NCBI RefSeq assembly: GCF_002494345.1
Contig: NZ_NXNI01000001.1
Span: 62,001 to 126,000, forward strand
Reading direction: 5' to 3'
Length of the DNA stretch: 64,000 nt
Source of the DNA: Natrinema ejinorense
GTDB lineage: Archaea; Halobacteriota; Halobacteria; Halobacteriales; Natrialbaceae
Position numbers and translations under genes: made by a program
In this document: in pieces, positions 28,840 to 53,032 of the stretch
Layout: each line of letters begins with the position of its first letter
Numbering within the stretch: the stretch's first letter is position 1
Notes under the pieces: generated by a model
What the model saw: the letters and a program-made list of their open reading frames with translations, nothing else
Told to the model about the DNA's origin: nothing
The model's database searches: none

Positions 28840-29019
28840 ATGTTCCGTGTGATCCTGCCCGAGGGGCTGATCGACTGCGATCGGTACGAATACGTCGACA
28901 ACGGCGTCGAACTCTACGACGAGGCCGACGAGTTCATCGCGTTCGTCCCCTACGCGACGCTGCAGGCGATCGTCGATGCGGACCGAGAGGGCGACGATAC
29001 GGAGCGATCGATCATGTAG
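28840..29019 (+). CDS. Short conserved-looking haloarchaeal protein, 59 aa
   Basis: A 59-codon frame, ATG at 28840 to TAG at 29019. The protein starts MFRVILPEGLIDCDRYEYVD, continues with a regular acidic beta-strand pattern (GVELYDEADEFIAFVPYATLQAIVDAD) and ends DDTERSIM. A strong TATA (TATATTT, about 28811-28817) lies about 25 bp before the ATG, indicating a leaderless mRNA. Its last 8 bp overlap the 3' end of the convergent tfb gene. Function unknown, but promoter, codon use and protein character strongly support a real gene. Confidence 0.75.
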   Translation: MFRVILPEGLIDCDRYEYVDNGVELYDEADEFIAFVPYATLQAIVDADREGDDTERSIM

Positions 29020-29971
29020 CCGGCTGCTGATCGATCGCCTCGAGTTGTTCGCGATATCGGTTCCGAACCGTCACGACCGTCGTCTGGGCGGTGTCGGCGA
29101 CGGCCCGTTGGGGGATGGTCTCGTCACAGAGGAGGCCGGCCGCGTAGATGGCTGCGGCTGCGAACCCGGTCGGCGATTTGCCCGAATGGAGCCCCTGTTC
29201 GGTCGTCCGATCGATGATCTCGATCGCTTTGCTCTCGACGTCGGGACCGACGTCGAGCTCCGAGCAAAACCGTGGGACGAACTGTCGCGGGTTCGTCGGC
29301 TCCAGGTTAATATCTAGTTCGTCCGCAATGTATCGATACGTCCGGCCGATCTCGCGTTGATCGACCCGTGAAACCGACGTTACTTCCTCGAGACTTCGCG
29401 GAATGTCTTCTTTCCGACAGGCCGTATAGAGGGCGCTGGTCGCGACGCCTTCGATCGATCGGCCCCGGATGAGATCCTGCTCGAGAGCCTGCCGGTAGAT
29501 GACGCTTGCAGTCTCTTTGACCGGTTTCGGAACGCCGAGGGCGCTGACCATCCGATCGATCTCCGAGAGGGCGTACTTGAGGTTCCGTTCACCCGCGTTT
29601 TTCGTCCGAATCCGTTCCTGCCAGACGCGGAGGCGATGGAGTTGGCCGTGTTTGTCGGCGGACATCGAGTGGCCGTTCGCGTCCTTGTTCCGCCAGTCGA
29701 TGGTCGTCGTCAATCCGCGATCGTGCATCGACTGTGTCAACGGCGCACCGACACGCGAGAGCTCGTCGTGTTCCTGTGCGTTGAACGCCCGCCACTCCGG
29801 CCCGTAATCGATCGGGTCTTCGGTAAGGACGAGGCCACACTGTTTACAGACTTGTTCACCGCGGTCCGGATCGTGGACGATCGTGTCGGTCTCGCAGTCG
29901 GGACACAAACCAGTCTCGACCTCCGCGGACTGTGATTCGCTGCTGCGTCGATCGATGATAGACCGCGTCAT
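29012..29971 (-). CDS. tfb: Transcription initiation factor B (TFB)
   Basis: A 319-residue archaeal TFIIB homologue. The zinc ribbon is C23-x2-C26...C42-x2-C45. The B-reader region (WRAFNAQEHDELSRVGAPLTQSMHDRGLTTTIDW) and two cyclin-fold repeats (about 115-205 and 210-305) follow. It recruits RNA polymerase to TBP-bound promoters. Haloarchaea carry several TFBs, and this copy may serve a subset of promoters. The ATG at 29971 is chosen because the 21 upstream residues read through a palindrome (29998-30041) in the promoter. Confidence 0.96.
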   Translation of the reverse strand: MTRSIIDRRSSESQSAEVETGLCPDCETDTIVHDPDRGEQVCKQCGLVLTEDPIDYGPEWRAFNAQEHDELSRVGAPLTQSMHDRGLTTTIDWRNKDANGHSMSADKHGQLHRLRVWQERIRTKNAGERNLKYALSEIDRMVSALGVPKPVKETASVIYRQALEQDLIRGRSIEGVATSALYTACRKEDIPRSLEEVTSVSRVDQREIGRTYRYIADELDINLEPTNPRQFVPRFCSELDVGPDVESKAIEIIDRTTEQGLHSGKSPTGFAAAAIYAAGLLCDETIPQRAVADTAQTTVVTVRNRYREQLEAIDQQPAT

Positions 29972-29997
29972 TAGTACCGGAGGAAACCGTGCCGGCA

Positions 29998-30041
29998 CTG
30001 TAAGGTGTTCACATGGTTTCGTGGGAAACACCATCTTACAG
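29998..30041. promoter_or_regulatory. Imperfect palindrome in the tfb promoter region
   Basis: The ends CTGTAAG and CTTACAG are perfect inverted repeats, with an inner ATGGTTTC/GAAACACCAT pair (2-nt bulge) around GTGG. It lies 27-70 bp before the tfb start, the region where TATA and BRE would be, and no ordinary TATA box is visible. It is therefore a candidate operator, possibly for autoregulation. Confidence 0.4.
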
Positions 30042-30711
30042 TACTGGTCGCTGTCAGTGGGTCCGCGGTTCCGTCGGTTTCAGCCGTCGGTAGCGAGCCG
30101 TCGCCGATCGTCCATCGATCTTCGACGACGGCCGACCGGAGAAAGAAAGATCAGTGTGCCGGCCGTCGGCCGCCTCGAGCGAACAGCTTCGAGGGCCGTA
30201 TCGAGACCGTGTCCCATCGGTCGTATCGGGGTGAAACGACCGTTGTGTGGTCGTTCCACCCGCGCGTGGCTTGTGTTCTCTTACCACATGAAACGTCGTC
30301 ATCGTTTCGTCGACTAGCTGGTATAAACAAGCTATTCATCGCGTAAATCCGTCGTTCGCCGTTGAACTGTCGCTCGACTTTATATCGGTTGGTCCGAACG
30401 GTCGCACCCAGTGCCGTGTTGCCACCGACTCCCGCTGAATCGTGCCGGCCGGACCTCCCGCCCCGGGTGGTCCTTCCGTACGCCGTCGGTATATCCACGC
30501 AACCGACTGCTACCGAGCGTCCCCGGGACCGACACGGATCACCCGTCACGGCGGCGCTCAGCCGCGGCGATAGTGCCGTCGCGAAGTCGCTCCGTACCTC
30601 CTTTGCAGACGGTGCGAAACGTGGTCGTGTTTAAGAGTATCTCTGTTGGTGTACAACCTGGTGTGTCAATCGTGATTTGGACTCGTCGTCCGAACGTACA
30701 GCGGTCGCCGT

Positions 30712-30743
30712 CGATCCGACGGGCCAGTGACGTGGCCCGTCGG
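30712..30743 (+). other. Perfect 13-bp-stem hairpin upstream of the DUF7344-type gene
   Basis: ATCCGACGGGCCA (30712-30724) pairs with TGGCCCGTCGGAT (30731-30743) across a 6-nt loop (GTGACG), ending 53 bp before the ATG at 30797. As RNA it would be a very stable stem-loop in the leader. It could be an upstream terminator, an RNA-binding-protein site or an operator. Confidence 0.55.
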
Positions 30744-30796
30744 ATGCAGGGGGCACCAGCCTCGAGCGGGGTCTCCCCGACCGGAGGGTCAGAATA

Positions 30797-31393
30797 ATGT
30801 CCTCGATCGATACGTCGCTCCCCGACGAAATCGCCTCGGTCGCCGACGCCGACGAAGACGAACGACTCTCGAAGGACGTCATTTTCGAACTCTTGAAGAA
30901 TCGCCGTCGCCGGGAAGTCCTCGCGTACTTGCTGGAGGCCGACGATACGGTGACGCTTGGCGAGCTCGCCGAACAGATCGCGGCCTGGGAGAACGACCTC
31001 GAGGTCAACGCCCTCAGTTCCGATCAGCGCAAACGGGTCTACGTCGCCCTCTACCAGACCCATCTGCCGAAGATGGACGACGCCGGCATCGTCGAGTACG
31101 ACCAGGACCGTGGGCTGATCTCGCTGTCTGACAACGCCGACCTGTTGATGATGTACCTCGATACGGATACCCATCGACAGGACCGCTGGGACCGGTGGTA
31201 CGCCGGCCTTAGCATCGTCGGGGCGACCGTCCTCGGAGCGGCACTCGTTGGCGTCCCGCTGCTGTCTTCCGTGCCGATGGTCGGCCTCGCGGGCGTCGTC
31301 GTCGCCGCCTTCTGTTGCCTCTCGACTGCTCACCTGGTCCGGAACCGAACCCAGGAACGCAACGTCGACGGAAAACTCTCCCGGATCGAGTGA
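30797..31393 (+). CDS. DUF7344-type winged-helix / membrane protein
   Basis: A 198-residue protein. Residues about 22-115 form the haloarchaeal DUF7344 winged-helix domain (DVIFELLKNRRRREVLAYLLEADDTVTLGELAEQIAAWEN...RKRVYVALYQTHLPKMDDAGIVEYD). Residues about 135-182 contain two membrane helices. It is a membrane-tethered putative regulator. It is paralogous to the protein at 60539-61066, sharing the RKRVYVALYQTHLP core, and the two bracket the glycan island. A 13-bp-stem hairpin lies in its leader. Regulatory targets are inferred from position only. Confidence 0.88.
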   Translation: MSSIDTSLPDEIASVADADEDERLSKDVIFELLKNRRRREVLAYLLEADDTVTLGELAEQIAAWENDLEVNALSSDQRKRVYVALYQTHLPKMDDAGIVEYDQDRGLISLSDNADLLMMYLDTDTHRQDRWDRWYAGLSIVGATVLGAALVGVPLLSSVPMVGLAGVVVAAFCCLSTAHLVRNRTQERNVDGKLSRIE

Positions 31394-31753: not shown

Positions 31754-32920
31754 CTACCTCTGGACCGTTTTCGGCCGCACTGCCGACTCGGGCTCCCGTC
31801 CGTCGTCGCTTCGATCGTCGACCACGTCGGCACAGAACGCCTCCAGTCGGGTGGCCTGCGCCCGCCACGAGAACGGGCGGATTGCCTCGCGGGCGTGCAT
31901 CCCGACCTCGGCTCGCCGTTGGGGATCCGAGAGCAGTCTCTCGAGTGCCGTCGCGATCGACTCCGTGTCGCCGACGTCGACGAGAAATCCGCTCGTCCCG
32001 TCGTCGACGTACGTTCTGATGCCCTCGAGATCGGCGGTTACGACCGGTAACCCACAGGCCATCGCCTCGATGTTCGCCATCCCGAACGTCTCTGCGTGGC
32101 TGGGGAGACAGAACACGTCGGCCGCGGCGTAGTAGCGGGGAAGGTCGCGATGATCGACCTCGCCCCAGAACACAACCGACTCCGCCAGCCCCAGCTTCCG
32201 GCACCGCTCGCGAATACGATCCTCCACTCCCGACCCGATCAGGTGGAGTTCGACCGACCGATCGAGGCCGGCGACCGCCTCGAGCAGATCGAATACCCCT
32301 TTCGATTCGACGAGGCGGCCGACGAACAGGACAACGGGCTCGGAACTCGAGAAGGCCGGGTCGATGTCGGGCTGGAAGACGTCGAGGTCGACGCCGGGGA
32401 AGACGATGTCGTCGACCTCGTAGCCGAACTCCGCTTCGACCCTCTTGGCGGTGTCCGCGGAGTTCGCGAGGACGGAATCGGTCTGGGAAAACCGATCCCG
32501 GAGCTTCGCGCCGAGCCCGACCTGATCGAAGCTGTGAAACTCGTACACCGTCGGGACATCGACGACGTTCGAAAGCATGAGATCGTCGAGGTACTGGAAG
32601 GTCAACAGGACGTCGACGTGTTCGTCGATATGTTCGACGAGTCCGTTGTAGTACCCCCACGTGGCCATCGCGACCTTCGCGTGGAACTGCCGGCCGAACG
32701 GCGAGAGCGTATCGAGGACCGATGGGAGTACGTCGTCGAAGCGCGGTGCCGTGACGACCGACACCGCCGACTGTTCTAGTCTAGCCGGCACGTCGCCGTC
32801 TCGGGTGTAGAGAAAAACGTCGTGACCCTCCGCGAGTTCGACGGCGATCCGCCGGGCGAAGATGGCGATTCCCCCCGAGTGGCGGGTTCCGGCGGCATCG
32901 TGATAGATACCTATTCTCAT
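31754..32920 (-). CDS. Glycosyltransferase family 4
   Basis: A 388-residue GT-B glycosyltransferase. The N-terminal donor-independent half starts MRIGIYHDAAGTRHSGGIAIF; the C-terminal half has VVLFVGRLVESKGVFDLLEAV and the E-x7-E motif in HAETFGMANIEAMACGLPVV. It is a cytoplasmic retaining transferase that would add a sugar to a lipid-linked glycan. The start at 32920 is supported by a TATA (ATATAACGATA, minus strand, about 32943-32953) about 28 bp upstream. It lies at the left edge of the glycan island and is divergent from the flippase. Confidence 0.92.
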   Translation of the reverse strand: MRIGIYHDAAGTRHSGGIAIFARRIAVELAEGHDVFLYTRDGDVPARLEQSAVSVVTAPRFDDVLPSVLDTLSPFGRQFHAKVAMATWGYYNGLVEHIDEHVDVLLTFQYLDDLMLSNVVDVPTVYEFHSFDQVGLGAKLRDRFSQTDSVLANSADTAKRVEAEFGYEVDDIVFPGVDLDVFQPDIDPAFSSSEPVVLFVGRLVESKGVFDLLEAVAGLDRSVELHLIGSGVEDRIRERCRKLGLAESVVFWGEVDHRDLPRYYAAADVFCLPSHAETFGMANIEAMACGLPVVTADLEGIRTYVDDGTSGFLVDVGDTESIATALERLLSDPQRRAEVGMHAREAIRPFSWRAQATRLEAFCADVVDDRSDDGREPESAVRPKTVQR

Positions 32921-33358: not shown

Positions 33359-34825
33359 ATGTCCGTCACTGACCGCATCGTCGACGGGTTCAAGGCGATG
33401 TTCGGCGCTCGCATCGTCTACAACGCGGTCAACGGGCTGTTGATGTTGCTGCTCGCACGAGTGTTTCTCACGCCCGACGAGTACGGGCTGTTGTACCTCG
33501 TCATCGCGATCATCGGCATTGGACAACTGTTTGCCGACCTCGGCCTCTCCCGATCGGCCGCCAGATACGTCTCGGAGTACAAGGAGTCCGATCCTGGGTC
33601 GATTCCGTTCATCATCAGGACGACGCTCAAGTACCGCCTTCTCCTGGTGGGCCTCGTCGCCGGTGTGCTTCTCGTGGGACGCGGCCGGATCGCGGCGCTT
33701 CAGGGCGATCCAGCGATCGCACCCCTCCTCGTCGTCGGGGCCGGCTGTCTCGTCTTTCAATCGCTCTACTCGTTCCCCGAATTCCTCTTTCAGGGGTTCA
33801 ACCGTGTCCGTCTGAGCGCGCTCCTCGAGGTCGTTCACAGCGTCACTCGCGCGGTGTTCGTCGTCGTACTGATACTGCTGGGATTCGGAGTGGCGGGAGC
33901 GTTGCTCGGCTACATGATCGGCGCACTCGTCGCCACCACCCTCGGTTTGGGGATCCTGTATCGCGAGTGCTATCGGGTCTACGAGGACCGCGGCGGGTCA
34001 CGGTCGCTCCGGGATCGGATCCTCAAGTACGGGGTGCCCCTGACGGCCTCGAGCGGTGCGAACGTCATCGACAAGCGAATCGATACGGTACTCGTCGGCT
34101 ACTTCCTCAATCCGGCCGCGGTCGGCTACTACGTCATCAGCAAGCAGATCACCAGCTTCGTGCTCGTACCGGCGGCCTCGCTGGGCTTCTCGGTTTCCCC
34201 GACGTACGGCGAACAGAAGGCCACTGAGTCGCTGGACCGAGCGGCCCGGATCTACGAGAACACGTTGCAGTACGTGCTTCTCATGTACGTTCCCGCCGCT
34301 GTTGGCGTTTTCATCGTCGCGGAGCCGACGATCGAACTGATGCTCGGGCCGGAATACGGTGGTGCGGCCCCTGTCTTGCAGGTGCTTGGAGTGTACATGG
34401 TCTTTTCGTCGATCACTTCCGTGACGACGAACGGTCTCGATTACCTCGGCCGCGCCTCCGATAGGGCCGTCGCGAAAGGGGTGACGGCGGTCGCCAACGC
34501 GATACTAAATATCGTGCTAATCCCGCGGTTCGGCGTCACCGGCGCGGCGATCGCGACCGTCGTGACCTACGGGATATACACGTTCGTCAACATGTACATC
34601 ATGTACGTCGAACTCCCGCTCGATCTCGCCCACCTCGGCCGACCGCTCGCGATCACTAGTGCGATCTCGGTCGGCATGGGGGTCGGAGTGATGGTCCTCG
34701 TTCCGTACGTTTCGAGCCTCTTCGCTCTCACGGGCGTGATCGCTGTCGGCGTCCTGATCTGGGCGACGCTTGCGGTGCTCAGCGGACTGATCGACGTTCG
34801 CGAGACCATGGCGCGTCTCTCCTGA
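33359..34825 (+). CDS. Oligosaccharide flippase (Wzx/MATE-type)
   Basis: A 488-residue polytopic protein with about 12-14 membrane helices. The N-terminus RIVDGFKAMFGARIVYNAVNGLLMLLLARVF and LGLSRSAARYVSEY are typical of the polysaccharide transporter family that flips lipid-linked oligosaccharides across the membrane. The N-terminal half ends around FQSLYSFPEFLFQGFNRVRLSA and the C-terminal half has the usual VLQVLGVYMVFSSITSVTTNGLDYLGRA. It is followed by the methyltransferase-like/kinase fusion gene at 34908. Confidence 0.92.
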   Translation: MSVTDRIVDGFKAMFGARIVYNAVNGLLMLLLARVFLTPDEYGLLYLVIAIIGIGQLFADLGLSRSAARYVSEYKESDPGSIPFIIRTTLKYRLLLVGLVAGVLLVGRGRIAALQGDPAIAPLLVVGAGCLVFQSLYSFPEFLFQGFNRVRLSALLEVVHSVTRAVFVVVLILLGFGVAGALLGYMIGALVATTLGLGILYRECYRVYEDRGGSRSLRDRILKYGVPLTASSGANVIDKRIDTVLVGYFLNPAAVGYYVISKQITSFVLVPAASLGFSVSPTYGEQKATESLDRAARIYENTLQYVLLMYVPAAVGVFIVAEPTIELMLGPEYGGAAPVLQVLGVYMVFSSITSVTTNGLDYLGRASDRAVAKGVTAVANAILNIVLIPRFGVTGAAIATVVTYGIYTFVNMYIMYVELPLDLAHLGRPLAITSAISVGMGVGVMVLVPYVSSLFALTGVIAVGVLIWATLAVLSGLIDVRETMARLS

Positions 34826-34907: not shown

Positions 34908-36701
34908 ATGCAACTCGATGGCGTGCCCGTCGACGAGGCGACGATGGAGTCGTTCGTCGACCGACTCGAGGCGGGCGACGAAACGGGAGCCGTCGACGAC
35001 CTGATCGATTCGGTCGACCGACCGCGACGGGTACTCTCCGCGCTGTTCGGCGTCGGCCACGACGGGTGGTGTCGGTTCCTCGCGGACGACATCGACGGGA
35101 CGTGTCTCGATCTGACGGGAAAGTACGGCCGCAGTACCCCGACGCTCGGTAGCCTCGCGGACGCCGTCTACACGCCCGAATCCTCCGCGGCGGGGAGGCG
35201 GCTGATCGCCGCCCGATCCGGGGTCGATCCGGACTGCGTCGGTCCCCCGATCGAGGGCGAGGCGACGCGGCCGGACTGGCCAAACTCGTTCGATACGATC
35301 GTGGTAAGAGACGACGCGGCGTCGAACGAGGCTCTCCTCGACCGAGTCGATCGCCTCTTCGACCGGCTGACAGCGGGCGGATCGCTCGTCGTCCAACTCG
35401 AGGGATGGCCCCGCACATCGGGACTGCTTGCCGAACTCGGTCTCGAACGCGGGCCCGCTCCGGGATCGGATCGCTCGATTCGGAGCATTGTTCGCTCGCG
35501 CCCGTCACGATTCGTCTCGACCCTCGAGTCGATCGGCTTTGCGGAGGTCGAACTGTACGCCCTGTTACCGTCGGGGTCGTCGTTCAGGTGGATGGTCCCC
35601 GCGAGTGATCCCGAGGCGATCGAGTGGCTCCTCACGGTGCTCAGCACGGAAACGCCGACCGGGCACCTGTCGCGGTTGGTCGCGACCGTTGCGAACGAGG
35701 TCGGCGCGTTGCTGCACGCCTATCCGACGTACATCGCCGTCTGTCGGACCACTCCGGCCGGGACGACCGACGGTCCCGCTCGAGTTTGCCGTCGCGGGGC
35801 GAACCGAACGCTCGTCTTCGAAATCGAAGACGGGGATGTCGTCTCAGTCCGAAAGCTACCGAACCACCCCGCACACGGCGCGTACAACGAGCGTGCGGCC
35901 GCAGTCCTCTCCACGCTCCGGTCCCGATCGACCGACGTGACGGCCACACTCCCATCCGTCTCGCTCGAGCGGACGAGATGCGGTCCCGTCATCGTCGAGG
36001 GGCCGGCGAGTGCGACGCCGCTCCGAGACGCGGTCGAAGGGGCGCGGCCGTCGCCGGAGACGTTCGAGCGGGTGCTCCGGCTCGGTCTCGAGTGGATCCG
36101 TTCGTTTCAGGAGGCGTATACGGGGCCGCGGACGACGCGTTCGGCCGCCGCGGTCCGACGGGACCTCGCCGTCGACCCCCTCGGTCTCGAACCTCCTGCG
36201 GTGACCGACCCGGTGTCGTTCCCGACGGTGCCCGTTCACGGTGACTATCATCCGGGGAACGTGATGCAGGCGGCCGATGGCTCGATCGACCGCATCATTG
36301 ACTGGGAGTACGCCTCGCTGACGGGGGATCCGATCGCCGACCCCGGATTGTACGCGCTCTCGCTCGCGACGTTCTCCTTCGGCGGATTCGAGGCGGGGCT
36401 CCGCCAGGCCTTTCTCGAGGACACGCCGTACTCGTCGATTCTCTACGATCGATTGGCCGCCTACGGCGACTCCATCGGCGTCTCGCCCCGGACGTTCGCG
36501 ATCTACCTCGGCAGTGCGTATGCGAGGCAGGCGACGGTTCACTTCGACGTAAACGGCCCGTGGCGGTTCCACCTCACCCCTCGAGAGAAGGCCGACCGAC
36601 TGGCGGTGCTGTACGACGAACGCCCAGAGATCTGCCGACGATTGGCCGCGGCGAGCGCGGACGCCCGTCGCGAGTCTTCTGGCCCCGCGGTACGTATGTA
36701 A
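34908..36701 (+). CDS. Methyltransferase-like / phosphotransferase (APH-fold) fusion
   Basis: A 597-residue protein in two parts. Residues about 1-290 have a class I methyltransferase layout: LDLTGKYGR in place of the usual LDxGxGxG, then IVVRDDA and GGSLVVQLEGWP; the SAM site is degenerate. Residues about 300-560 are an aminoglycoside-phosphotransferase-like kinase with VHGDYHPGNVM (catalytic Asp) and DWEYAS (metal Asp). The layout recalls bacterial WbdD, which caps O-antigen chains with a methylated phosphate. A GTG at 34893 is an alternative start. Confidence 0.8.
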   Translation: MQLDGVPVDEATMESFVDRLEAGDETGAVDDLIDSVDRPRRVLSALFGVGHDGWCRFLADDIDGTCLDLTGKYGRSTPTLGSLADAVYTPESSAAGRRLIAARSGVDPDCVGPPIEGEATRPDWPNSFDTIVVRDDAASNEALLDRVDRLFDRLTAGGSLVVQLEGWPRTSGLLAELGLERGPAPGSDRSIRSIVRSRPSRFVSTLESIGFAEVELYALLPSGSSFRWMVPASDPEAIEWLLTVLSTETPTGHLSRLVATVANEVGALLHAYPTYIAVCRTTPAGTTDGPARVCRRGANRTLVFEIEDGDVVSVRKLPNHPAHGAYNERAAAVLSTLRSRSTDVTATLPSVSLERTRCGPVIVEGPASATPLRDAVEGARPSPETFERVLRLGLEWIRSFQEAYTGPRTTRSAAAVRRDLAVDPLGLEPPAVTDPVSFPTVPVHGDYHPGNVMQAADGSIDRIIDWEYASLTGDPIADPGLYALSLATFSFGGFEAGLRQAFLEDTPYSSILYDRLAAYGDSIGVSPRTFAIYLGSAYARQATVHFDVNGPWRFHLTPREKADRLAVLYDERPEICRRLAAASADARRESSGPAVRM

Positions 36702-36952: not shown

Positions 36953-39028
36953 ATGGCACGCGAATCTTCGAAACTGGATGACGGCGAGTCACCGAACCCG
37001 GCCGTAGACGGTGCCGAACGGTCGAGAACGTCGAGTAATACGAAATTACTCGATCGACGGAGTTACCTCACGCTGACTGGCGCGGGCACCGCAGGGCTGT
37101 TCGCCGCAGCCTCCGGCGTCGTCGGCGCGAGCGAGCACGGCGAATACGATGTTATCGAGGCGAGCGGGCAGACGGTCACACTCGAGGACGAAACGTTCGA
37201 AAACAAACTCATCGACGTGACCACTGGCGACGGGATCACGTTCATGATTGACGGCCCGACGAAGATCCGAAACGTCGGCTTCAAGGGTCTCTATCAGGGC
37301 GGATCGTTCCTCTTCTCGATCACCGCTGACAGCGGTACCGTCGAGTTCGAGAACGTCTACATGGGTGACGGTGCCAACAAGACAGGCACCGACTTCACGC
37401 ACGGTCCTGGCGCCGTCTTCTATCACCGCGACGCCAACTGCGATGTCGTCTTTCGCCACTGCCAGGTACAGGGCTTCCCCAACAACGCGTGGTACTGCTC
37501 GAACACCACCTACGGCGGCACCGCCCGTTGGGAGGAGTGTTTCGGAAAGAACAACGGCGTCACGACGTTTCGCTGTTCCGACCCGGGCGACGAACTCGTC
37601 GGCTGCGTCGCCTACAACGACGACACCGACTACTCGACCGATTACGCCGATTGGGGCGGCTACGGCGAGACAGCCGGCCGTCCGCTCTGGGTCTGGGATC
37701 CGGGCAACCCGACTGTCAAAAACTGTCACTTCGACGCGGGCGACTACCCGCGAGCGATCGCGTCTTATAACGACGCCCCGGTCACGCCCGACGGCGGGGC
37801 GGTCCGAGGCGGCGTCTCGTCCAGCGTTGACACATCGAACATGGGGAACGACCCCACTCTCGAGATCCCCGACGGCGTGCCGACCTCTGCGGAAGAGGCT
37901 GCGAGCGGCGGTTCCTCGGAGTCTCCGTCCAGTAGCGACCCCGAAGAAGGCTCCGACGGGTCGTCGCTGCTGAATACGATCGTCTTCGACGGGAACGGGA
38001 CGGCGGAAACCACCAGCTACGAGTTCGTCGTCAGCGACGCGGTCGAGCCAAGCACCGACGAGAACGCGACGATCGACGAGGCCGCGACCGTCGACGGTAC
38101 CCGCGCCAGCGGCACCGTCGCCGACTACCTCGATGCGTTCCGTTTCGACGGGCAGATCGAGCGACTGTCGGTGGACGGTAACGCGACCGTCCGCGTCAAC
38201 GGCGTCGAGATCGATCCCGCCGATATCGACGACGTCCTGCAGAACGTCGTCCTCATCGATGGCAGCGACGAGGACGCGACCCGATACGAGTTCACCGTCA
38301 CCGGAGACGTCGAACGAAGCTCGTACGATGGGGCGTCGATCGACGACGAGGACGCCATCGAGGACGGGACCGTCTACGGTACCGTCGCCGACTGGAAGGA
38401 TGCCTTCCGCTACAGCGGCGAGATCGTGGAACTGACCGTCGATGGACCGGGAACCGTCTCGGTCAACGGTGAGCGAGTCGATCCCTCGGACTTCGGCGCC
38501 GATCTCCCCCACGTACTCGAGGTTCAGGGGACGGGAACGCCGGTGGCGTTCGAGATCACCGTCGACGGCGAGATCGAACTCGCGGGCGAGGAACCGCCCG
38601 AAGACGAGGCGACGACGATCTCCGGATCGACGGCCCAGAGCACCGTCACCGACGACAGCCTCCGGTTTAACTTCTCGGGCGTCCTGACCGATGTCTCGCT
38701 GACCGGCGGGACGCCGAAGATCACGGTCGACGGCGAGGAGATCGACCTCGAGGAGTACGGCGATCCGGAACTGCTCCCTCACGCGATCGTCTTCGACGGC
38801 ACCGAGACGGCCGAGCCGAGTACGTACTCGTTCCGCGTGGACGGCACTGTCATGAAAGCACAGTATCGCGACGCGTCGATCGACGATGGGGACGTCGTCG
38901 AGGACACGACGGTTCGGGGCGGCGTCGGCGACTGGCTCGACGCCTACTGGTTCGACGGCGACATCGTGGACGGCCAGATTCTCGGCGATGCGACGGTCGA
39001 CATCCAGTACAACGCGCGCGAGCAGTAG
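36953..39028 (+). CDS. Tat-exported beta-helix protein with C-terminal repeats
   Basis: A 691-residue acidic protein. A Tat signal is present (R35-R36 in DRRSYLTLTGAG, hydrophobic stretch 41-58, export after about residue 60). Residues about 63-310 look like a right-handed beta-helix (pectate-lyase-like; IRNVGFKG, VEFENVYMGDG, NCHFDAGD) and end IPDGVPTSAEEAASGG. Residues 339-691 hold four tandem repeats of about 90 residues starting near 339, 428, 518 and 608 (IVFDG, VVLIDG, VLEVQG, AIVFDG). Probably a glycan-binding or glycan-cleaving surface protein; activity unproven. Confidence 0.85.
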   Translation: MARESSKLDDGESPNPAVDGAERSRTSSNTKLLDRRSYLTLTGAGTAGLFAAASGVVGASEHGEYDVIEASGQTVTLEDETFENKLIDVTTGDGITFMIDGPTKIRNVGFKGLYQGGSFLFSITADSGTVEFENVYMGDGANKTGTDFTHGPGAVFYHRDANCDVVFRHCQVQGFPNNAWYCSNTTYGGTARWEECFGKNNGVTTFRCSDPGDELVGCVAYNDDTDYSTDYADWGGYGETAGRPLWVWDPGNPTVKNCHFDAGDYPRAIASYNDAPVTPDGGAVRGGVSSSVDTSNMGNDPTLEIPDGVPTSAEEAASGGSSESPSSSDPEEGSDGSSLLNTIVFDGNGTAETTSYEFVVSDAVEPSTDENATIDEAATVDGTRASGTVADYLDAFRFDGQIERLSVDGNATVRVNGVEIDPADIDDVLQNVVLIDGSDEDATRYEFTVTGDVERSSYDGASIDDEDAIEDGTVYGTVADWKDAFRYSGEIVELTVDGPGTVSVNGERVDPSDFGADLPHVLEVQGTGTPVAFEITVDGEIELAGEEPPEDEATTISGSTAQSTVTDDSLRFNFSGVLTDVSLTGGTPKITVDGEEIDLEEYGDPELLPHAIVFDGTETAEPSTYSFRVDGTVMKAQYRDASIDDGDVVEDTTVRGGVGDWLDAYWFDGDIVDGQILGDATVDIQYNAREQ

Positions 39029-39665: not shown

Positions 39666-40616
39666 TCAGTTCCCTGCGCCAGATGCCGCTTCTTCGGGGC
39701 TCGTCGGGACGCCGTCGGGAATGTAGGCGTCGGGGTCGGTACCGACGTCGTCGCCGAGCTGGACGCTCGAGCCGGCCGCTTCGGAGATCCCGGCCTGGTC
39801 GTCGTAATCGGATTCCGTGACGACGACCTCCGTCGGGTTCCCGTTCGCACCGGCGACGATGGCGTTGTTCTGGCCGTTCATCTCGATCTGGCAGCCCTCG
39901 ACCTCGACCGTGCCGGGTGCCCACGCCCAGATGCCGCGGCCGACGTAGCCCTCGCTACTGTCGACGTAGACACTCGAGTTCGTGACCTTGCTCCCTTTGG
40001 TCCCCAGTCGGAAGTGGGAGACGTAGCAGTTCGCGGCGAAGCTGCTATCGATGTGGATCGTGCCGCCGCCCTTGTTGCCGGGGGCGGAGCCGTAGATCGC
40101 GTTGTCCGCGAAGTTCTGAATGTTGACGTTTTTGAAGTCGATGTGGCCGTTGTGATCCGGGGCGACCCAGAAGGCCGTCTGGCCGTGGCCGTTCGGATTG
40201 CCGTTGCCGGTGCTCGAGCCGTCACCGAGGTAAACGTTCTCGACGGTGCAGGTGCCGCCGCTCGTGTCGGAGATGCCGAAGGTGGCGGTCCCGGTGCCGG
40301 AGGTGTTCTCGCCCTTGAAACCGACGTTTCGAATCGTCCAGTCGCTGCTGTGGGCGGTGATGACGATGTCCTGGCCGGTCGTCATGTCGATGAGCTTGTT
40401 CTCCCAGGTCTCACCGGCGTCGATCGTAATCGTCTGTCCCTGGGCTTCGATCACCTCGTAGTCGTCCTCGGCCGCAGCGGTGCCGACCCCACCGATTGCG
40501 GTCGCCGCGGTCGCGACCGCGGCGAGCGAACGAACGTAGTTACGGCGGGTTAACTCACTGTTACGGCCTGTAGTCGGAGCGGATTCCGTCTCGGACGTAC
40601 GGGGGTTCTGCGCCAT
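39666..40616 (-). CDS. Tat-exported beta-helix protein
   Basis: A 316-residue acidic protein. The Tat signal is R24-R25 in ELTRRNYVRSLAAVATAATAIGG, with cleavage around residue 50. The mature part is a beta-helix with a run of Asn/Gly-rich turns (IRNVGFKGENTSG, VENVYLGDGSS, HIDFKNVNIQNFADNAIYG). It ends IPDGVPTSPEEAASGAGN and lacks the repeats of its longer paralogue at 36953. Shared sequence such as RNVGFKG, ENVY-GDG and IPDGVPTS-EEAASG shows common ancestry. Function unproven. Confidence 0.85.
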   Translation of the reverse strand: MAQNPRTSETESAPTTGRNSELTRRNYVRSLAAVATAATAIGGVGTAAAEDDYEVIEAQGQTITIDAGETWENKLIDMTTGQDIVITAHSSDWTIRNVGFKGENTSGTGTATFGISDTSGGTCTVENVYLGDGSSTGNGNPNGHGQTAFWVAPDHNGHIDFKNVNIQNFADNAIYGSAPGNKGGGTIHIDSSFAANCYVSHFRLGTKGSKVTNSSVYVDSSEGYVGRGIWAWAPGTVEVEGCQIEMNGQNNAIVAGANGNPTEVVVTESDYDDQAGISEAAGSSVQLGDDVGTDPDAYIPDGVPTSPEEAASGAGN

Positions 40617-41021: not shown

Positions 41022-42815
41022 CTACGCCTCGCTGCTGATGGCGTACATCTCGAACTCCTCGTTCGAGACGACCTTGTTCACGCCCGGTCGGGTATCGAGC
41101 CCCTCGAGTGCGGCCTTGCGGTAGTTGAGTTCGTTGTAGACCGCGATCTCTCTGGTCGTGTCCCACTCCGTGTGGACGAAGTAGTACTCGTCGGTGGGGT
41201 AGGCTCCGCTGTAGTTGCCAGCCGAGAACGTACTGGCGTTGACCGAACCGGTGGCCGCCGACGCGCCCCCGATGGTGTCGTCGCCGCCGGCGATCCCGTT
41301 GATCCCGTGATCGTATCGGTAGGGATCGTATCCCATCCCTGCGTAGGGAACCCCATCGGCACCGCGATCGAGCCCGGTTTCGTAGCCGCTCATCATCTCG
41401 GGGGTCACGTGCTGGCCCGGGTTGTAGATCAGCGGCGACGCGAACACGGTCACCAACCCGAGCACGAGACAGGCGCCCAGCAGTAGCGCCATAACCGCGT
41501 TCGCACCCGGGCGCGTGATCACGGTTGAGAGCCCACCCGCGAACTGAGCCAGCGCGATGCCTGCGAGGATCGTGATGAGGACGTAGATGAAGCCGAGCTG
41601 TCGGAACGCCATCGTCGGGGTTCCGACGAAGTAGACGGCGAACATGCCCCCGAGCGGTAAGAGCGCGAGCGCGGTGTAGTTGACGAACGACTGCGTTTCC
41701 CAGTCGAGGCTCGTCCGGCCCAGCCAGACGACCAGGATGAACAGACCCACGATGAGGCCGACGATCGCCGCATCCAGGAACATCTTCACGAACAGTTCGC
41801 CGAGGCTCCCGCCGATCTCGGTCAGCGACCCGCCGCGCTGGCCGACTTCGGACCCTGCGCCGACGTCCTGTGCGAGCAGTCCGTACACGAGCCCCGACGC
41901 CGCGCTCCTGAACCGCTCGTTGCCCAGCGCCCAGAGGCCGAACATCCCGCCGAGGACGAGCGTCTGTGCGTACACCGTCGGATGCTCGAGCATCGGATGG
42001 TCGTCGAATCGTCGACGGGCGAGATACTGGACGCCGCCGATCGCACCGACGAGGATGACGACGTTGAACATCTGCTGGGGGTGGACCAACAGGAGCAAGA
42101 GCGCGGTCAGAAAGACGAGCACGCTGAACGGCGACAGTCCGAACGGGAGCCGTTCGATCGTCGCCCGACGCCGGAGGAAGGCGACGATCGCGAAGAGCAC
42201 GGCGGGAACGAGAAACAGGGCGTTCGAGTTGGTGTGGACGCCCATGTGCGTCGCGATATTGTTGATCGGTAACACCATCCAGGAGACGATCGCGGCGAAC
42301 CCGACGGCGGCCCCGTCGCCCGCCATATCGCGGACGACGAGCGGGACGAAGAGCAGGAACGGCACGAACAGAACGACCATGCCGATCAGGAGGGCCCGTT
42401 CGATCGACACGCCGCCGGTGAAGTGTAAGACCGTTGCGATGGCGTGTAATCCCGGATAGAACAGTTCGTGTGGGAGGGTCCCGCCAGCGGTGATGTCCCG
42501 CGTCCAGCCCAGGTGTGTCAGCGCGTCCCCCATCCCGGCGAAGCGATAGTTCCGGATCACCGGGAGACTCACGAGCGCCGTGACCGTCGTCGCGCCGAGT
42601 GCGATCCCGAGCCCTTGCTGGCGACCGCGACAGGAGAGGGTCGTCCCGACCGCGATCGCGAGCGCGAGTGCAAAGCCAGCCCAGACGAGCGCCGGTGTCC
42701 CCGCATAGACCGACGCCTCGTATGCGGTCGCCGGGTTCGCTCTCGCGACTGCGATTCCGATCGCGACCGCGAGGAATCCGACCGCGACCGTCACGTTGAG
42801 CGTCGACCGTCTCAT
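41022..42815 (-). CDS. Large multi-pass membrane protein, GT-C-like
   Basis: A 597-residue protein with about 12-14 membrane helices followed by a soluble C-terminal domain of about 130 residues (from HVTPEMMSGYETG). The loop after the second or third helix has NYRFAGMGDALTHLGWTRDI, an acidic first-loop motif like that of GT-C lipid-phosphate-sugar transferases. The C-terminal part has TEWDTTREIAVYNELNYRK. It is a candidate membrane glycosyltransferase or polymerase. The GT-C assignment is inference; the exact family is not recognised. Confidence 0.65.
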   Translation of the reverse strand: MRRSTLNVTVAVGFLAVAIGIAVARANPATAYEASVYAGTPALVWAGFALALAIAVGTTLSCRGRQQGLGIALGATTVTALVSLPVIRNYRFAGMGDALTHLGWTRDITAGGTLPHELFYPGLHAIATVLHFTGGVSIERALLIGMVVLFVPFLLFVPLVVRDMAGDGAAVGFAAIVSWMVLPINNIATHMGVHTNSNALFLVPAVLFAIVAFLRRRATIERLPFGLSPFSVLVFLTALLLLLVHPQQMFNVVILVGAIGGVQYLARRRFDDHPMLEHPTVYAQTLVLGGMFGLWALGNERFRSAASGLVYGLLAQDVGAGSEVGQRGGSLTEIGGSLGELFVKMFLDAAIVGLIVGLFILVVWLGRTSLDWETQSFVNYTALALLPLGGMFAVYFVGTPTMAFRQLGFIYVLITILAGIALAQFAGGLSTVITRPGANAVMALLLGACLVLGLVTVFASPLIYNPGQHVTPEMMSGYETGLDRGADGVPYAGMGYDPYRYDHGINGIAGGDDTIGGASAATGSVNASTFSAGNYSGAYPTDEYYFVHTEWDTTREIAVYNELNYRKAALEGLDTRPGVNKVVSNEEFEMYAISSEA

Positions 42816-43099: not shown

Positions 43100-44407
43100 A
43101 TGTCATCGCTCATCATCGATCGGCTCTCGGCCACTGACGGGACCCTCGAGTGTTCGGTTCGCTGCTCGGGTGACCTCGAGCGGTTCGTCACCGACGAGCC
43201 GTTCCGAACGAGCTACGACGTGTCGATCGCGGACGTTCCCGCTGGCGTGCTCGCGATCCCGGTTCTCGCGCAGGTGTGTCCGGTCGCGTGGGCCAACGGG
43301 GCCGACGTCTACGTCGACGAGGTCGACGCGACGTTCGCACGCGCCCTCGCGGACGTCCGGGAGTCACTGTCCGAGATGTACGACTTCATCGACGGCGGCA
43401 CGCTTTACGCGCGCCGAACGATCGAGCCCGATCCCGGGACGAGCGGCGAGCACGGACTGCTCTTTACCGGTGGCGTCGACTCGACGTGTTCGTACGTCCG
43501 TCACCGCGCGGAGTCGCCGACGCTGATCAGCGTCCGGGGGTGGACGATCACCCCTGATGCGTCGGACGACGACAAGTGGGACGCCCTCCGAACGCGCGTC
43601 TCGAGGTTTGCCGACGACCACGACTGCGAGACCGCGTTCGTCGAGTCGAACATGCTCTCCTTTCTCGACCATCCCATGTTGCTGGCTCACTACAAACGCT
43701 ACGTCGACGGCGGCTGGTACAGCTCCGTCGGCCACGGACTCGGACTCCTCGGCCTCTGTGCGCCGATGGCCTACGCGCGCGGGATGGACGACCTCTCCGT
43801 CGCCGCGACCCACTGGGACGGGATCGACCTCGAGTGGGGGTCCCGTCCCGACATCGACGAGCACGTCCGATGGACCGGGACGCAGTGTCACCACGACGCC
43901 TACGACCTCACCCGACAGGAACGACTCGACGTCATCGCCGAGTACGTCCGCAACGAGGACCCGACCCTCCAGCTCCAGACCTGTAACGACCGGATGGACG
44001 GGAACTGCGGCGAGTGCGAGAAATGTTACCGCACGGCCGTCGGCCTCCGCCTCTCGGGACTCGAGCCGTCCGATCACGGGTATCCGTTCGCCGACTCGGA
44101 CTACGCCCGACTCCGGCGCTCCCTCGAGGGCGGTGACTGGGTTCTCGGGCAGGACGAACGACACATGTGGGCGGACATCCGCGATCGCGTCCGGGAAACG
44201 GAGCCCGTGACGCCGGCCGAGCGAGCGTTCTTCGAGTGGCTCGAGGGGGTCGATCTCGACGAGTTGATCTCCGTCTCCGACCCGCCACTCTCGCATCGGC
44301 TCCTTCGGGCCGGTGCGAGAAACGCCCCCAACGCCCTCTACAACGCCGCGTATCCGGCCTGGATCGCGGCGAAAACCGGCGTTCGGCGCGTCCGATCCGA
44401 TCGGTAA
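43100..44407 (+). CDS. PP-loop (QueC/adenine nucleotide alpha hydrolase-like) protein with cysteine cluster
   Basis: A 435-residue soluble protein. The PP-loop FTGGVDST is at residues 122-129 and implies ATP-dependent adenylation of a substrate. A cysteine cluster (CNDRMDGNCGECEKCYRT, about 293-311) resembles the zinc site of 7-cyano-7-deazaguanine synthase (QueC). It differs in length and in the N-terminal 110 residues (VSIADVPAGVLAIPVLAQVCPVAWANGADVYVDEVD). It lies in a glycan locus, so an amidation or thiolation of a sugar or nucleotide is possible. The function is not recognised. Confidence 0.75.
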   Translation: MSSLIIDRLSATDGTLECSVRCSGDLERFVTDEPFRTSYDVSIADVPAGVLAIPVLAQVCPVAWANGADVYVDEVDATFARALADVRESLSEMYDFIDGGTLYARRTIEPDPGTSGEHGLLFTGGVDSTCSYVRHRAESPTLISVRGWTITPDASDDDKWDALRTRVSRFADDHDCETAFVESNMLSFLDHPMLLAHYKRYVDGGWYSSVGHGLGLLGLCAPMAYARGMDDLSVAATHWDGIDLEWGSRPDIDEHVRWTGTQCHHDAYDLTRQERLDVIAEYVRNEDPTLQLQTCNDRMDGNCGECEKCYRTAVGLRLSGLEPSDHGYPFADSDYARLRRSLEGGDWVLGQDERHMWADIRDRVRETEPVTPAERAFFEWLEGVDLDELISVSDPPLSHRLLRAGARNAPNALYNAAYPAWIAAKTGVRRVRSDR

Positions 44408-48758: not shown

Positions 48759-48833
48759 CCGCTCGAGCCGCCCCTGCCGATCGGTAGCGATCGAATGGTG
48801 GTGCTACTCGGCGGCACGAATCGGTATGACGAC

Positions 48834-48843
48834 GATAACAAAG
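48834..48843 (+). promoter_or_regulatory. Island promoter element GATAACAAAG
   Basis: Exact consensus copy. It lies 27 bp before the ATG at 48870, fitting TATA position for a leaderless transcript, and decides the start of the oxidoreductase gene. Confidence 0.6.
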
Positions 48844-48869
48844 CCCGCAGCCGGCCCGCTCTCGAGCAA

Positions 48870-49991
48870 ATGGTACGTCCCCTTTTGGATCGATTGACCG
48901 ATTCGAACGCACTGTCGCTTGGCATCCTCGGCGTCGGGAACATCGGGATCGTCCACCTGAAATCGGCGGTCGCGATGCCCGATGTGGAGGTCGTCGCCGC
49001 TGCCGACGCCGTTCCCGAAAATCGCGCTCGAGCCGAACGCGCCGGCGCGTCGCGAACGTACGACGACTACGGGACGCTCCTCGAGTCCGAGGAGCTGGAC
49101 GCGGCGGTCGTCGCACTGCCCCCGTTCCTCCACGCCGACGCCGTCGAGCAGGCCGCGCAAGCGGGGGTCGACGTCTTCGTCGAGAAACCCCTCGCCCGGT
49201 CGACCGAGGAAGCCGACGCGCTACTCGCGACCGCCAGCGAGGCGGACATCGCCGTCGGCGTCGATCACACCCTGCGCTACCAGCCGGACATGGTCGGCGT
49301 CAAGGAGGCCTACGATCGGGGCAGCGTCGGTCACGTCCCCTACGCCTCGATCACACGGCTCAACGACGGCCCGCTCGGCCGTCCGCCCGCCGACGATCGG
49401 CCGCCGGCCTGGCCGCTGGATCCCGACGCCGCCGGCGGCGGCTCCCTGCTCGAGCTCGGCGTTCACTGCTTCGACGTCCTCGAGTGGCTGTTCGGCGAAC
49501 TCGAGGTCCGCGACGCGTCGCTGGGGCAGAGCCTCGAGATCGACGTCGAGGACGCCGCGACCGTTCTCATGGAGGCACCGGAGGCGGGCACGACGATCAC
49601 GCTCCACTGTGGCTCCTACCAGTGGGAACAGTTGCCCGAAGTCAACACCCGGCTGCGCCTCGAAGGCGTCACCGGAACGATCAGTAATCGGGACCACCTG
49701 CCCGAGAACTTCTATGCGGGCGCAGCCGGGTCCGCCCTGTCGAACGTCGCGAGCCGATTCACGGGCGACGAACCGGACGTCTTCGGGCCGACGTTCTACC
49801 TGCGGGCCCACTACGACGCGCTGGCGGATTTCTGTGAGGCGATCCGTGCGGGTGAGCGGCCGCCGGTCGACGGGGCCGATGGCCGACGAACGCTGGCACT
49901 CGCCGAACGGGCCGCCGAGCTGGCTGCCGCGGAGCCGGCGGCGACGGACCGCGACCCCGACGAACCCGAGACGCCGGAGGTGAGCCTATGA
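48870..49991 (+). CDS. Gfo/Idh/MocA-family oxidoreductase
   Basis: A 373-residue NAD(P)-dependent sugar dehydrogenase. The Rossmann motif is LGILGVGNIGIVHL at the N-terminus, the catalytic lysine motif is VEKPLARS, and the C-terminal alpha/beta domain has GGGSLLELGVHCFDVLEWLFG. The ATG at 48870 is chosen because the island promoter element at 48834-48843 is 27 bp before it. The stop overlaps the next gene by 4 bp. It probably oxidises a nucleotide-sugar in the glycan pathway; substrate unknown. Confidence 0.9.
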   Translation: MVRPLLDRLTDSNALSLGILGVGNIGIVHLKSAVAMPDVEVVAAADAVPENRARAERAGASRTYDDYGTLLESEELDAAVVALPPFLHADAVEQAAQAGVDVFVEKPLARSTEEADALLATASEADIAVGVDHTLRYQPDMVGVKEAYDRGSVGHVPYASITRLNDGPLGRPPADDRPPAWPLDPDAAGGGSLLELGVHCFDVLEWLFGELEVRDASLGQSLEIDVEDAATVLMEAPEAGTTITLHCGSYQWEQLPEVNTRLRLEGVTGTISNRDHLPENFYAGAAGSALSNVASRFTGDEPDVFGPTFYLRAHYDALADFCEAIRAGERPPVDGADGRRTLALAERAAELAAAEPAATDRDPDEPETPEVSL

Positions 49992-50917
49992 GCACGGCGC
50001 GGGTCCGTACAGCCGCCGTCGACGCTGCCGAGCGCCGTGGCGGCTGGCGACCCGATACTGACCGCCGAATGGCACTGTTCGAGTCACCCGTTCGCGACGT
50101 GCTCGAGCCGGCCATCGACGCGCTCGCGGCTGCCGACCGGATCACGCTCGTCCCGGATGCACACTACCCGTTCCACCCCTCGTCGGGGATGGTCACCGAC
50201 CCCGCCGTGATCGGAGCCATCGTCGCTTGGCTCGAGGGGCGGACGGACGCCGATATCGCCGTCGCCGGCGCGAGCGACGAGCGCATCTCCTTTGACCGAA
50301 CCGTCCAGTATCTCGGCTACGAGAGCCTGCTCGAGGGGTTCGACGCGGACGCCGTCGATCTGGCGGACGAGCCCCGAACCGGCGACCTGTCCGCGCTCGG
50401 GGACGCCCCGGTCGCGCTCTCGGTCCCGAATCGACTCGCCGAGGGGGCCGTGATCGTCGTCCCGTCGCTGCGGGCGACCGCGGCCGGACCGGTCGCGGGC
50501 GCGATGCGAACGCTCGCCGACCTCGTCGACTGCGACGCGGCGTCCGATCGGGCCGCCGTCGCGGCGACGCGGACCGTCGATCCCGCAGTCGCCGTCCTCG
50601 ACGCGACGACCGCCTACGCTGGCGATCCCGTCGCGGGGGACACGCTGTTCGCCGGCTCGGCTCCGGCCGTCGATGCCGTCGCGACATCCCTGCTGGGCCG
50701 CTCCCTCGAGAGCGACGGCGCGCTCGAGACGGTCCGCGGGGACCGCGGACCGATCTCCGTCGAGGGCGACGCCGACTTCGATCGGCTGCGAGAGCGGATG
50801 CCCGACGGCGAGTTGCCGCCGGCGGACGATACGCATCCCGCCGTCTCGACTGCGTACCGCGTCTACGCGGCAGTGGCCGGCGACGCCGTGCCGCCCCAAC
50901 TCGAGGGCGGTCGATGA
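49988..50917 (+). CDS. DUF362-family protein
   Basis: A 309-residue soluble protein of the DUF362 type, with VVPDAHYPFHPSSGM-like start of the core (ITLVPDAHYPFHPSSGMVTDPAVIGAIVAWLEG) and VAGASDERISFDRTVQYLGY. No iron-sulfur cysteines are present, unlike ferredoxin-fused relatives. It is sandwiched between an oxidoreductase and an epimerase, with 4-bp overlaps on both sides, so it works in that pathway. Biochemical role unknown. Confidence 0.8.
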   Translation: MSTARVRTAAVDAAERRGGWRPDTDRRMALFESPVRDVLEPAIDALAAADRITLVPDAHYPFHPSSGMVTDPAVIGAIVAWLEGRTDADIAVAGASDERISFDRTVQYLGYESLLEGFDADAVDLADEPRTGDLSALGDAPVALSVPNRLAEGAVIVVPSLRATAAGPVAGAMRTLADLVDCDAASDRAAVAATRTVDPAVAVLDATTAYAGDPVAGDTLFAGSAPAVDAVATSLLGRSLESDGALETVRGDRGPISVEGDADFDRLRERMPDGELPPADDTHPAVSTAYRVYAAVAGDAVPPQLEGGR

Positions 50918-53000: not shown

Positions 53001-53032
53001 CTCGAGTCGTGCGCAGGGACGAACCGGAGCCG

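What the first reader, a model, noticed from the sequence alone, without database searches (positions are those of the whole stretch)
34908..36701. Methyltransferase-like / kinase fusion next to the flippase, in the manner of WbdD
The N-terminal part has a degenerate SAM-binding pattern and the C-terminal part an intact APH-like kinase. In bacteria, WbdD combines a methyltransferase and a kinase and caps the growing O-antigen. The position directly after a flippase fits a chain-length or capping role for an archaeal surface glycan. Loss of the SAM motif may mean only the kinase is active.
Basis: partly seen in the sequence, partly recalled or inferred. Interest (0 to 1): 0.55.

Follow-up and report, generated by a model that had tools for sequence, protein, structure and literature searches.

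The report
Archaeal methyltransferase-like kinase beside flippase
A salt-loving archaeon carries a two-part protein, a worn methyltransferase joined to an intact sugar-kinase-like enzyme, encoded right behind a membrane flippase; it most likely puts a phosphate mark on a surface sugar chain before that chain is moved out of the cell.

Summary
Window 34908-36701 (+, 597 aa) encodes an N-terminal class I methyltransferase (MT) fold with a damaged SAM motif (LDLTGKYGR; G72 replaced by K) and a C-terminal APH-type kinase with its full catalytic set, 82 bp behind a MOP flippase gene. Foldseek's best PDB matches are WbdD entries, through the shared MT-kinase order. It belongs to a family seen full-length only in haloarchaea in my searches. 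In the 38 distinct members collected, the kinase residues (K316, HGD444-446, N451, DWE465-467) are kept 38 of 38; a four-residue SAM core is kept in 19 of 38 and changes state at least seven times on the best tree. A flippase gene is adjacent in 23 of 38, in eight loci with a 4-bp overlap or 3-6 bp gap. It is not a WbdD: no coiled-coil ruler, no Wzt_C domain found in the genome, and the window's SAM site is damaged. My best reading, inferred and not shown: a cytoplasmic kinase that phosphorylates the lipid-linked glycan carried by its partner flippase, with methylation an optional, repeatedly lost second step. Closest functional analogues are WbdD, the Klebsiella O7 MT-kinase terminator and the TacF gatekeeper flippase. 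A chain-length role is not supported.

The parts
34908..36701 (+). MT-like/kinase fusion protein (MTK), 597 aa
35025..35762 (+). class I methyltransferase-like domain (about residues 40-285)
   Evidence: fold matches; family profile; Pfam Methyltransf_11 in 18 of 27 members, not the window's
35103..35135 (+). SAM motif I remnant CLDLTGKYGRS (residues 66-76); G72 of the family replaced by K
35766..36623 (+). APH-type kinase domain (about residues 287-572)
   Evidence: Pfam APH; APH(3'')-Id Z 13.7 and LicA Z 13.4
35853..35855 (+). K316, invariant ATP-binding lysine candidate of the N-lobe
   Evidence: 38 of 38
36237..36260 (+). catalytic loop HGDYHPGN (residues 444-451)
   Evidence: H, G, D and N each 38 of 38
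36297..36308 (+). metal-binding IDWE (residues 464-467)
   Evidence: D, W and E each 38 of 38
33359..34825 (+). partner MOP-superfamily flippase (488 aa)
   Evidence: a flippase gene is next to MTK in 23 of 38 members
31754..32920 (-). family 4 glycosyltransferase (GT4) of the same recurrent locus
36953..39028 (+). right-handed beta-helix protein, probably exported (twin-Arg-like N-terminus read by eye)
   Evidence: Pfam Beta_helix in 5 of 12 aligned homologues at E<=1 (best 1.5e-10), not the window's; homologue annotated as beta-helix
39666..40616 (-). second homologue of the beta-helix protein
41022..42815 (-). multi-spanning membrane protein; homologue annotated DUF6541 (61.5% identity)

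Best explanation
MTK is a soluble cytoplasmic enzyme that works with the neighbouring MOP flippase. Its APH-type kinase domain transfers a phosphate from ATP to a sugar of the lipid-linked glycan while this still faces the cytoplasm; the MT-like domain helps hold the substrate. In relatives with an intact SAM site it may also methylate the product, most likely the new phosphate, as in WbdD. In the window protein the methyl step is probably lost, leaving a phosphate mark. The flippase then moves the marked glycan. SHOWN by computation: the predicted fold, the catalytic residues, the family, the recurrent gene pair with the flippase, repeated loss of SAM residues under full kinase conservation. 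INFERRED: substrate, product, order of steps, and any gating by the flippase.
For: Kinase set 38 of 38 against SAM core 19 of 38; at least 7 state changes of the SAM core on the best tree, 5 forced by starred branches. Flippase adjacent in 23 of 38: 20 upstream on the same strand (in L057 and L062 a short antisense ORF is called between), L054 downstream on the same strand, L032 and L035 convergent (with the maps); gaps of -4 or 3-6 bp in eight same-strand loci. From the flippase side: of 29 matches to the L034 flippase, 11 of the 12 at 63% identity or more (the query's own gene among them) have MTK next to them, against 1 of 17 (a fragment) below 60%. In four genomes of the window's genus (L046-L049) the pair stands two to six genes from secY with no GT4, beta-helix or DUF6541-like gene found within 9 kb. 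No transmembrane stretch (maximum 19-residue hydropathy 1.2). Fold: WbdD first; APH(3'')-Id and LicA. Precedents: WbdD (PMC3482155), Klebsiella O7 ORF6-N with an MT and an APH-like kinase (PMC11231755), TacF monitoring phosphocholine (PMC13385700, abstract).
Against: No substrate or product is known. 15 of 38 members have no adjacent flippase in the DNA I held (two of them near contig ends). The same flippase group often occurs without MTK: in the group that holds the window's flippase only 7 of 26 rows have it, one of these a broken copy, so such flippases do not need MTK in general. APH-type kinases also act on small molecules and drugs. The MT half of degraded members is still under purifying selection (dN/dS about 0.2-0.3 within the sister clade, 0.42 window against L046, 0.35-0.54 in three pairs of other degraded lineages), so it may keep an activity I call lost.
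Confidence: 0.5

Rival explanations
1. A true WbdD-like chain terminator: MTK caps the growing end of a polymer with phosphate or methyl-phosphate, and so fixes its length.
For: Same domain order; WbdD entries are the best Foldseek matches; a GT4 gene lies within 9 kb in 16 of 38.
Against: No room for a coiled-coil ruler; no Wzt_C hit in the genome; in the model the two domains are placed differently from WbdD (TM 0.20-0.31, rmsd 17.5-21.4 A over five WbdD entries), although domain placement in a predicted model is uncertain; SAM core incomplete in half of the members.
Confidence: 0.15
2. A small-molecule kinase that makes a precursor, for example sugar-1-phosphate salvage, or a choline/ethanolamine kinase fused to a phospho-base methyltransferase that feeds a phospho-decoration.
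For: LicA choline kinase is the second row (Z 13.4, 3.7 A, 237 aligned; tied with the first); phosphoethanolamine methyltransferases are among the best Foldseek matches.
Against: MT matches of this kind are generic class I folds. No LicD phosphocholine transferase found in the genome. Half of the members lack part of the SAM core. A tight flippase gene pair is not needed for a soluble precursor.
Confidence: 0.17
3. A protein kinase or scaffold that regulates the flippase or a glycosyltransferase by phosphorylation or contact.
For: Recurrent pairing with the flippase gene; the MT-like domain stays under purifying selection when SAM residues are lost.
Against: The kinase resembles small-substrate APH/LicA enzymes in family and fold.
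Confidence: 0.1
4. An aminoglycoside- or macrolide-type drug-modifying enzyme.
For: Pfam APH; weak NCBIfam and PDB similarity to Mph enzymes around HGD-IDWE.
Against: All eight NCBIfam scores lie far below their cut-offs; recurrent glycan-locus setting and flippase pair; fused MT-like half.
Confidence: 0.03

Closest known systems
WbdD of E. coli O9a (PMC3482155; abstract, passages and sections 6 and 7 read)
   Same: N-terminal class I MT, C-terminal kinase of the protein-kinase-like fold, acts in glycan assembly.
   Different: WbdD has a long coiled coil, a eukaryotic-like kinase, works with an ABC exporter and has a working SAM site; the window protein has an APH-type kinase, no room for a coiled coil, a MOP flippase neighbour and a damaged SAM motif.
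ORF6-N methyltransferase-kinase terminator of Klebsiella pneumoniae O7 (PMC11231755; section 11 and passages read)
   Same: MT domain (its best DALI match CgnL, 7pd7, is also a match here) plus a kinase nearest to an APH-type enzyme (AmiN; family recalled); shown to phosphorylate and partly methylate a glycan end.
   Different: Coiled coil, carbohydrate-binding module and fused GT2 modules; ABC-dependent export.
Lcin_0519-type kinase-MTase family (PMC9758233; section 9 and passages read)
   Same: Kinase-MTase fusion, in part next to surface-polysaccharide genes.
   Different: Bacterial, commonly with a coiled coil, near Wzm/Wzt in part of the genomes; untested experimentally to those authors' knowledge.
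LicA choline kinase and TacF gatekeeper flippase of Streptococcus pneumoniae (PMC13385700; abstract read; LicA's role recalled)
   Same: A LicA-type kinase fold, and a MOP flippase that monitors a phospho-decoration of its cargo.
   Different: Separate genes with LicC/LicD (recalled); choline chemistry; no LicD found in this genome.
Haloarchaeal AglR (translocation) and AglP (MT) of N-glycosylation (PMC4335974; passages read)
   Same: Haloarchaeal lipid-linked glycan modified by an MT and then translocated; in Halobacterium a methyl on the lipid-linked glycan is said to be removed, apparently after translocation, by an unknown enzyme.
   Different: Separate proteins; no kinase mentioned in the passages I saw.

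Membership tests
WbdD-type chain terminator | N-terminal class I MT fold joined to a C-terminal kinase in one chain | tested here: met
WbdD-type chain terminator | intact SAM-binding glycine motif | tested here: not met
   window has K at G72 and T at 70; 19 of 38 members keep the four-residue core
WbdD-type chain terminator | long C-terminal coiled-coil ruler after the kinase | tested here: not met
   protein ends at 597, kinase alignments reach 572-573, last helix 572-591; judged by length and model, no coiled-coil predictor was run
WbdD-type chain terminator | export by ABC transporter with a Wzt glycan-binding domain | tested here: not met
   no Wzt_C match in the window's genome; 2 of 14 control genomes ring, one of them an archaeon; ABC exporters without that domain were not sought
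WbdD-type chain terminator | kinase of WbdD's own sequence type | tested here: inconclusive
   Pfam APH; no WbdD chain among the 60 shown of 84 PDB sequences at E<=10; Foldseek ranks WbdD first for the whole chain
WbdD-type chain terminator | phosphorylates and methylates the glycan end | not testable with these tools
   needs enzyme assay
APH phosphotransferase family (Pfam PF01636) | score over the curated cut-off, with Lys, HGDxxxxN and D of the metal site | tested here: met
   43.7 bits against 23.2; residues 38 of 38
Class I SAM-dependent methyltransferase superfamily | Rossmann-like MT fold and sequence kinship | tested here: met
   Z about 12-13 to many MTs; family profile to 1xxl E=7.6e-9; window sequence alone has no Pfam MT hit
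Class I SAM-dependent methyltransferase superfamily | catalytic activity of the window protein | not testable with these tools
   motif I damaged, E91 kept
Klebsiella O7 ORF6-N-type terminator | MT plus APH-like kinase followed by a coiled coil | tested here: not met
   MT and APH-type kinase present; no room for a coiled coil; direct sequence comparison not made
Lic phosphocholine pathway | LicD transferase present in the genome | tested here: not met
   no LicD match; 2 of 14 control genomes ring, both bacteria

The most novel reading that the evidence does not exclude
Haloarchaea hold a licensed-flipping system: MTK writes a phosphate, in some lineages a methyl-phosphate, on a lipid-linked surface glycan, and the co-encoded MOP flippase reads that mark before export. 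It would have arisen independently of WbdD/Wzt, with the kinase as the essential step and the methyl step repeatedly discarded.
Probability: 0.25. Interest if true: 0.75.

Novelty: new variant of a known kind. Interest (0 to 1): 0.52.

Why it matters
The tested MT-kinase fusions that cap glycans which I found in print are bacterial and work with ABC exporters. A haloarchaeal family tied to a MOP flippase, in which the SAM site has been damaged several times while the kinase set is kept in every member seen, gives a clean test of which half of such enzymes matters, and would point to phosphate-marked archaeal surface glycans. Lineages with the flippase but without MTK, or with a broken MTK, are ready-made comparisons.

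Tried and rejected
Chain-length ruler: rejected (no room for a coiled coil after the kinase). ABC-export partner: Wzt_C not found. Phosphocholine route: LicD not found. Defence role: no PADLOC hit at E<=0.001 for five proteins of the locus. Link between flippase adjacency and an intact SAM core: 14 of 19 intact and 9 of 19 degraded members are adjacent; not tested further because rows are related. Faster decay of the MT half: the ratio of -ln(identity), MT over kinase, is 1.29 (median, 36 pairs) in the window's clade and 1.01 (55 pairs) in a clade with intact motifs, but 0.91 (6 pairs) in the most degraded clade; pairs are not independent, and dN/dS shows the domain is still constrained, so I do not call it a decaying domain.

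Structure of the 41022-42815 membrane protein: the model failed (pLDDT 37.5, four sequences) and was not used; its profile found nothing in the PDB at E<=1. A first scan of genome contigs with the window protein alone found nothing; the alignment found 15 loci, of which 9 (L031-L039) are relatives over most of the length and 6 (L040-L045) share only a stretch of the kinase and were set aside. WbdD is not in the 50 rows; by that tool's own note this is no evidence against it. One search translated minus-strand loci on the wrong strand and was redone; only wrote a script.

Paper searches that returned no paper on this family: no paper at all; three papers; in the one passage of PMC6254364 that I saw WbdD is only a reference; one paper, listing seen only. 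Searches were looked at as listings, from which I opened PMC4335974 and PMC13385700. The library lacks most subscription journals.

Full report
OBSERVATION. The window lies in a haloarchaeal genome (G000, 4.48 Mb in 3 contigs). The closest named relative of the protein is from Natrinema mahii (48% identity), whose contig length equals that of a genome of the window's own genus (G061), so the genus is probably Natrinema (inference). The ORF at 34908-36701 reads 597 aa from ATG, or 602 aa from GTG at 34893. It follows a flippase gene (33359-34825; Pfam Polysacc_synt E=3e-29) by 82 bp on the same strand. The C-terminal half is Pfam APH (E=3.6e-11, 43.7 bits against a cut-off of 23.2). The N-terminal half alone matches no MT family.

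WHAT THE TWO HALVES ARE. I aligned the protein with 26 relatives. Of these 27, 25 match Pfam APH and 18 match Methyltransf_11 at E<=0.01, and the family profile finds class I methyltransferases in the PDB (1xxl E=7.6e-9, 1vl5 E=2e-8). The AlphaFold2 model, built only with window and the search for related loci sequences (10 rows), has pLDDT 84 and pTM 0.84; residues 172-196 are of low confidence. Foldseek's first three matches are WbdD entries (E 6e-7 to 1.3e-6), with TM of 0.20-0.31 and rmsd of 18-20 A: the two folds and their order match, while their placement does not. Domain by domain, the kinase is nearest to APH(3'')-Id (Z 13.7, 3.4 A, 229 aligned) and LicA (Z 13.4, 3.7 A, 237 aligned), and the N-terminal half to MTs such as CgnL 7pd7 (Z 13.1, 3.5 A, 162 aligned).

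SAM SITE AGAINST KINASE. From the neighbourhoods fetched I collected 40 matches over 120 bits and dropped two duplicates (L152 equals L052, L103 equals L038), leaving 38 distinct members; a broken copy (L068) fell below the threshold, and L102 is a partial frame. This set is not exhaustive. Kinase residues K316, H444, G445, D446, N451, D465, W466 and E467, and also R300 and W396, are identical in 38 of 38; the plasmid copy found later has the same motifs. A SAM core defined by me as D/E68, G72, G74 and D/E91 is complete in 19 of 38. The window lacks G72 but keeps E91; its sister clade (L031, L046-L049) keeps G72 but has Q at 91. On a tree built without the motif columns the SAM state changes at least 7 times, 5 of them forced by starred branches. 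The kinase is therefore the constant activity and the methyl step the expendable one, as far as residues can tell. The MT-like domain is nevertheless not drifting freely: dN/dS is about 0.2-0.3 in four pairs of the sister clade, 0.42 between the window and L046 (dS 1.2, near saturation) and 0.35-0.54 in three pairs of other degraded lineages; the kinase gives 0.23-0.41 in the same pairs. Eighteen of 38 members carry two CxxC pairs (a zinc-ribbon-like element) before the MT domain; the nine members of the window's clade have none.

CONTEXT. A flippase gene lies next to MTK (under 600 bp from the stop-to-stop frame) in 23 of 38 members: 20 upstream on the same strand (in L057 and L062 a short antisense ORF is called between), L054 downstream on the same strand, and L032 and L035 convergent (one search read with the gene maps). 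Two of the 15 others (L033, L036) lie near a contig end. In L034, L039, L051 and L052 the gap is 3-6 bp, and in L053, L056, L058 and L100 the genes overlap by 4 bp, as in co-translated operons; in the window it is 82 bp and in other loci it is up to several hundred. To avoid choosing flippases because they sit by MTK, I searched 125 family genomes with the L034 flippase: of 29 matches, 11 of the 12 at 63% identity or more, the query's own gene among them, have MTK beside them (the exception, G021, has its MTK about 150 kb away), while of 17 matches below 60% only G095 has an MTK fragment (against coordinates; at most ten candidates a genome were scored). In four genomes of the window's genus (L046-L049) the two genes lie two to six genes from secY without other genes of the set, so the link is to the flippase itself. 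In many other loci they belong to a recurrent set: TFB, DUF7344, GT4, flippase, MTK, beta-helix proteins, a DUF6541-like membrane protein and a PP-loop-like protein (within 9 kb: beta-helix in 19, GT4 in 16, membrane protein in 12 of 38). A named record, a plasmid of Halomontanus rarus, shows DUF6541, a homologue of the window's second beta-helix protein, flippase, 'phosphotransferase' (MTK, 6 bp gap) and a beta-helix protein in this order. Seventeen loci fetched for flippases like the window's (L135-L151) hold no MTK, and 13 of the 17 hold a beta-helix gene. On the flippase tree the group with the window's flippase has MTK in 7 of 26 rows, one of them the broken copy (quick tree, several long branches, rows partly chosen for MTK). 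MTK is thus an optional add-on to a flippase system.

DISTRIBUTION. At E<=1e-40 the family is in 27 of 391 genomes of the class (18 of 86 genera); in a second draw at E<=1e-20 it is in 10 of 392 genomes of the phylum, four of these with partial matches only; every match is in the window's own order. In the window's family 46 of 125 genomes match at E<=0.001, many of them only over about 50 residues of the kinase. The one genome of the same species that is held shows no match.

MECHANISM. The protein has no transmembrane stretch, so it should act in the cytoplasm. The simplest reading of an invariant small-substrate kinase encoded with a flippase is that it marks the flippase's cargo with phosphate. 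Bacterial MT-kinase fusions do this at glycan ends: WbdD phosphorylates the terminal mannose and then methylates the phosphate, and termination is essential for export (PMC3482155); the Klebsiella O7 terminator has an MT and an APH-like kinase and makes phosphate and methyl-phosphate ends, and its kinase mutant shows polymer as expected for unexported material (PMC11231755). The MOP flippase TacF monitors phosphocholine on its cargo (PMC13385700, abstract). In Halobacterium a methyl on the lipid-linked glycan is reported to be removed, apparently after translocation, by an unknown enzyme (PMC4335974, passage). Substrate, product and gating are inference; none is shown here.

MEMBERSHIP. It works, most likely, like an MT-kinase glycan modifier, but it is not a member of the WbdD family: SAM motif, coiled coil and Wzt-type export were tested and not met. 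It is best filed as a separate haloarchaeal family of MT-APH kinases.

VERDICT. Observation confirmed, interpretation partly supported, chain-length role unsupported. New variant of a known kind.

Noticed in passing
window 36953-39028 and 39666-40616: Beta-helix proteins with twin-Arg-like N-termini (by eye) recur beside this flippase in loci with and without MTK, up to three copies per locus; possibly the glycan's protein acceptor or a glycan-processing enzyme.
   Followed up: partly
window 43100-44407: A 435-aa protein with a PP-loop-like GGVDSTCSY stretch and a Cys cluster (motif by eye) has no Pfam or NCBIfam hit, and is 73-86% identical to seven aligned homologues from loci of this set.
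   Followed up: partly
window 41022-42815: DUF6541-like membrane protein with D97, H101 and H245-P246-Q247 invariant in 12 sequences; might be an extracytoplasmic glycosyltransferase, but the predicted model failed.
   Followed up: partly
L068 (G055) about 9627-10491: MTK is broken into two frames beside an intact flippase; G095 shows only an MTK fragment beside its flippase. MTK can be lost while the flippase stays.
   Followed up: partly
L031 6417-9619: Natrinema mahii has two flippase genes in tandem before MTK; only the second belongs to the MTK-linked branch.
   Followed up: no
window 48795-60071: A second sugar cluster: two Gfo/Idh oxidoreductases, an epimerase, GT4 and GT2, UDP-sugar dehydrogenase, DegT aminotransferase and hexapeptide acyltransferase, as for an acetylated amino-uronic acid sugar.
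   Followed up: no
window 29012-31393: A TFB transcription factor and a DUF7344 protein head the same locus in several genomes and may control it.
   Followed up: no
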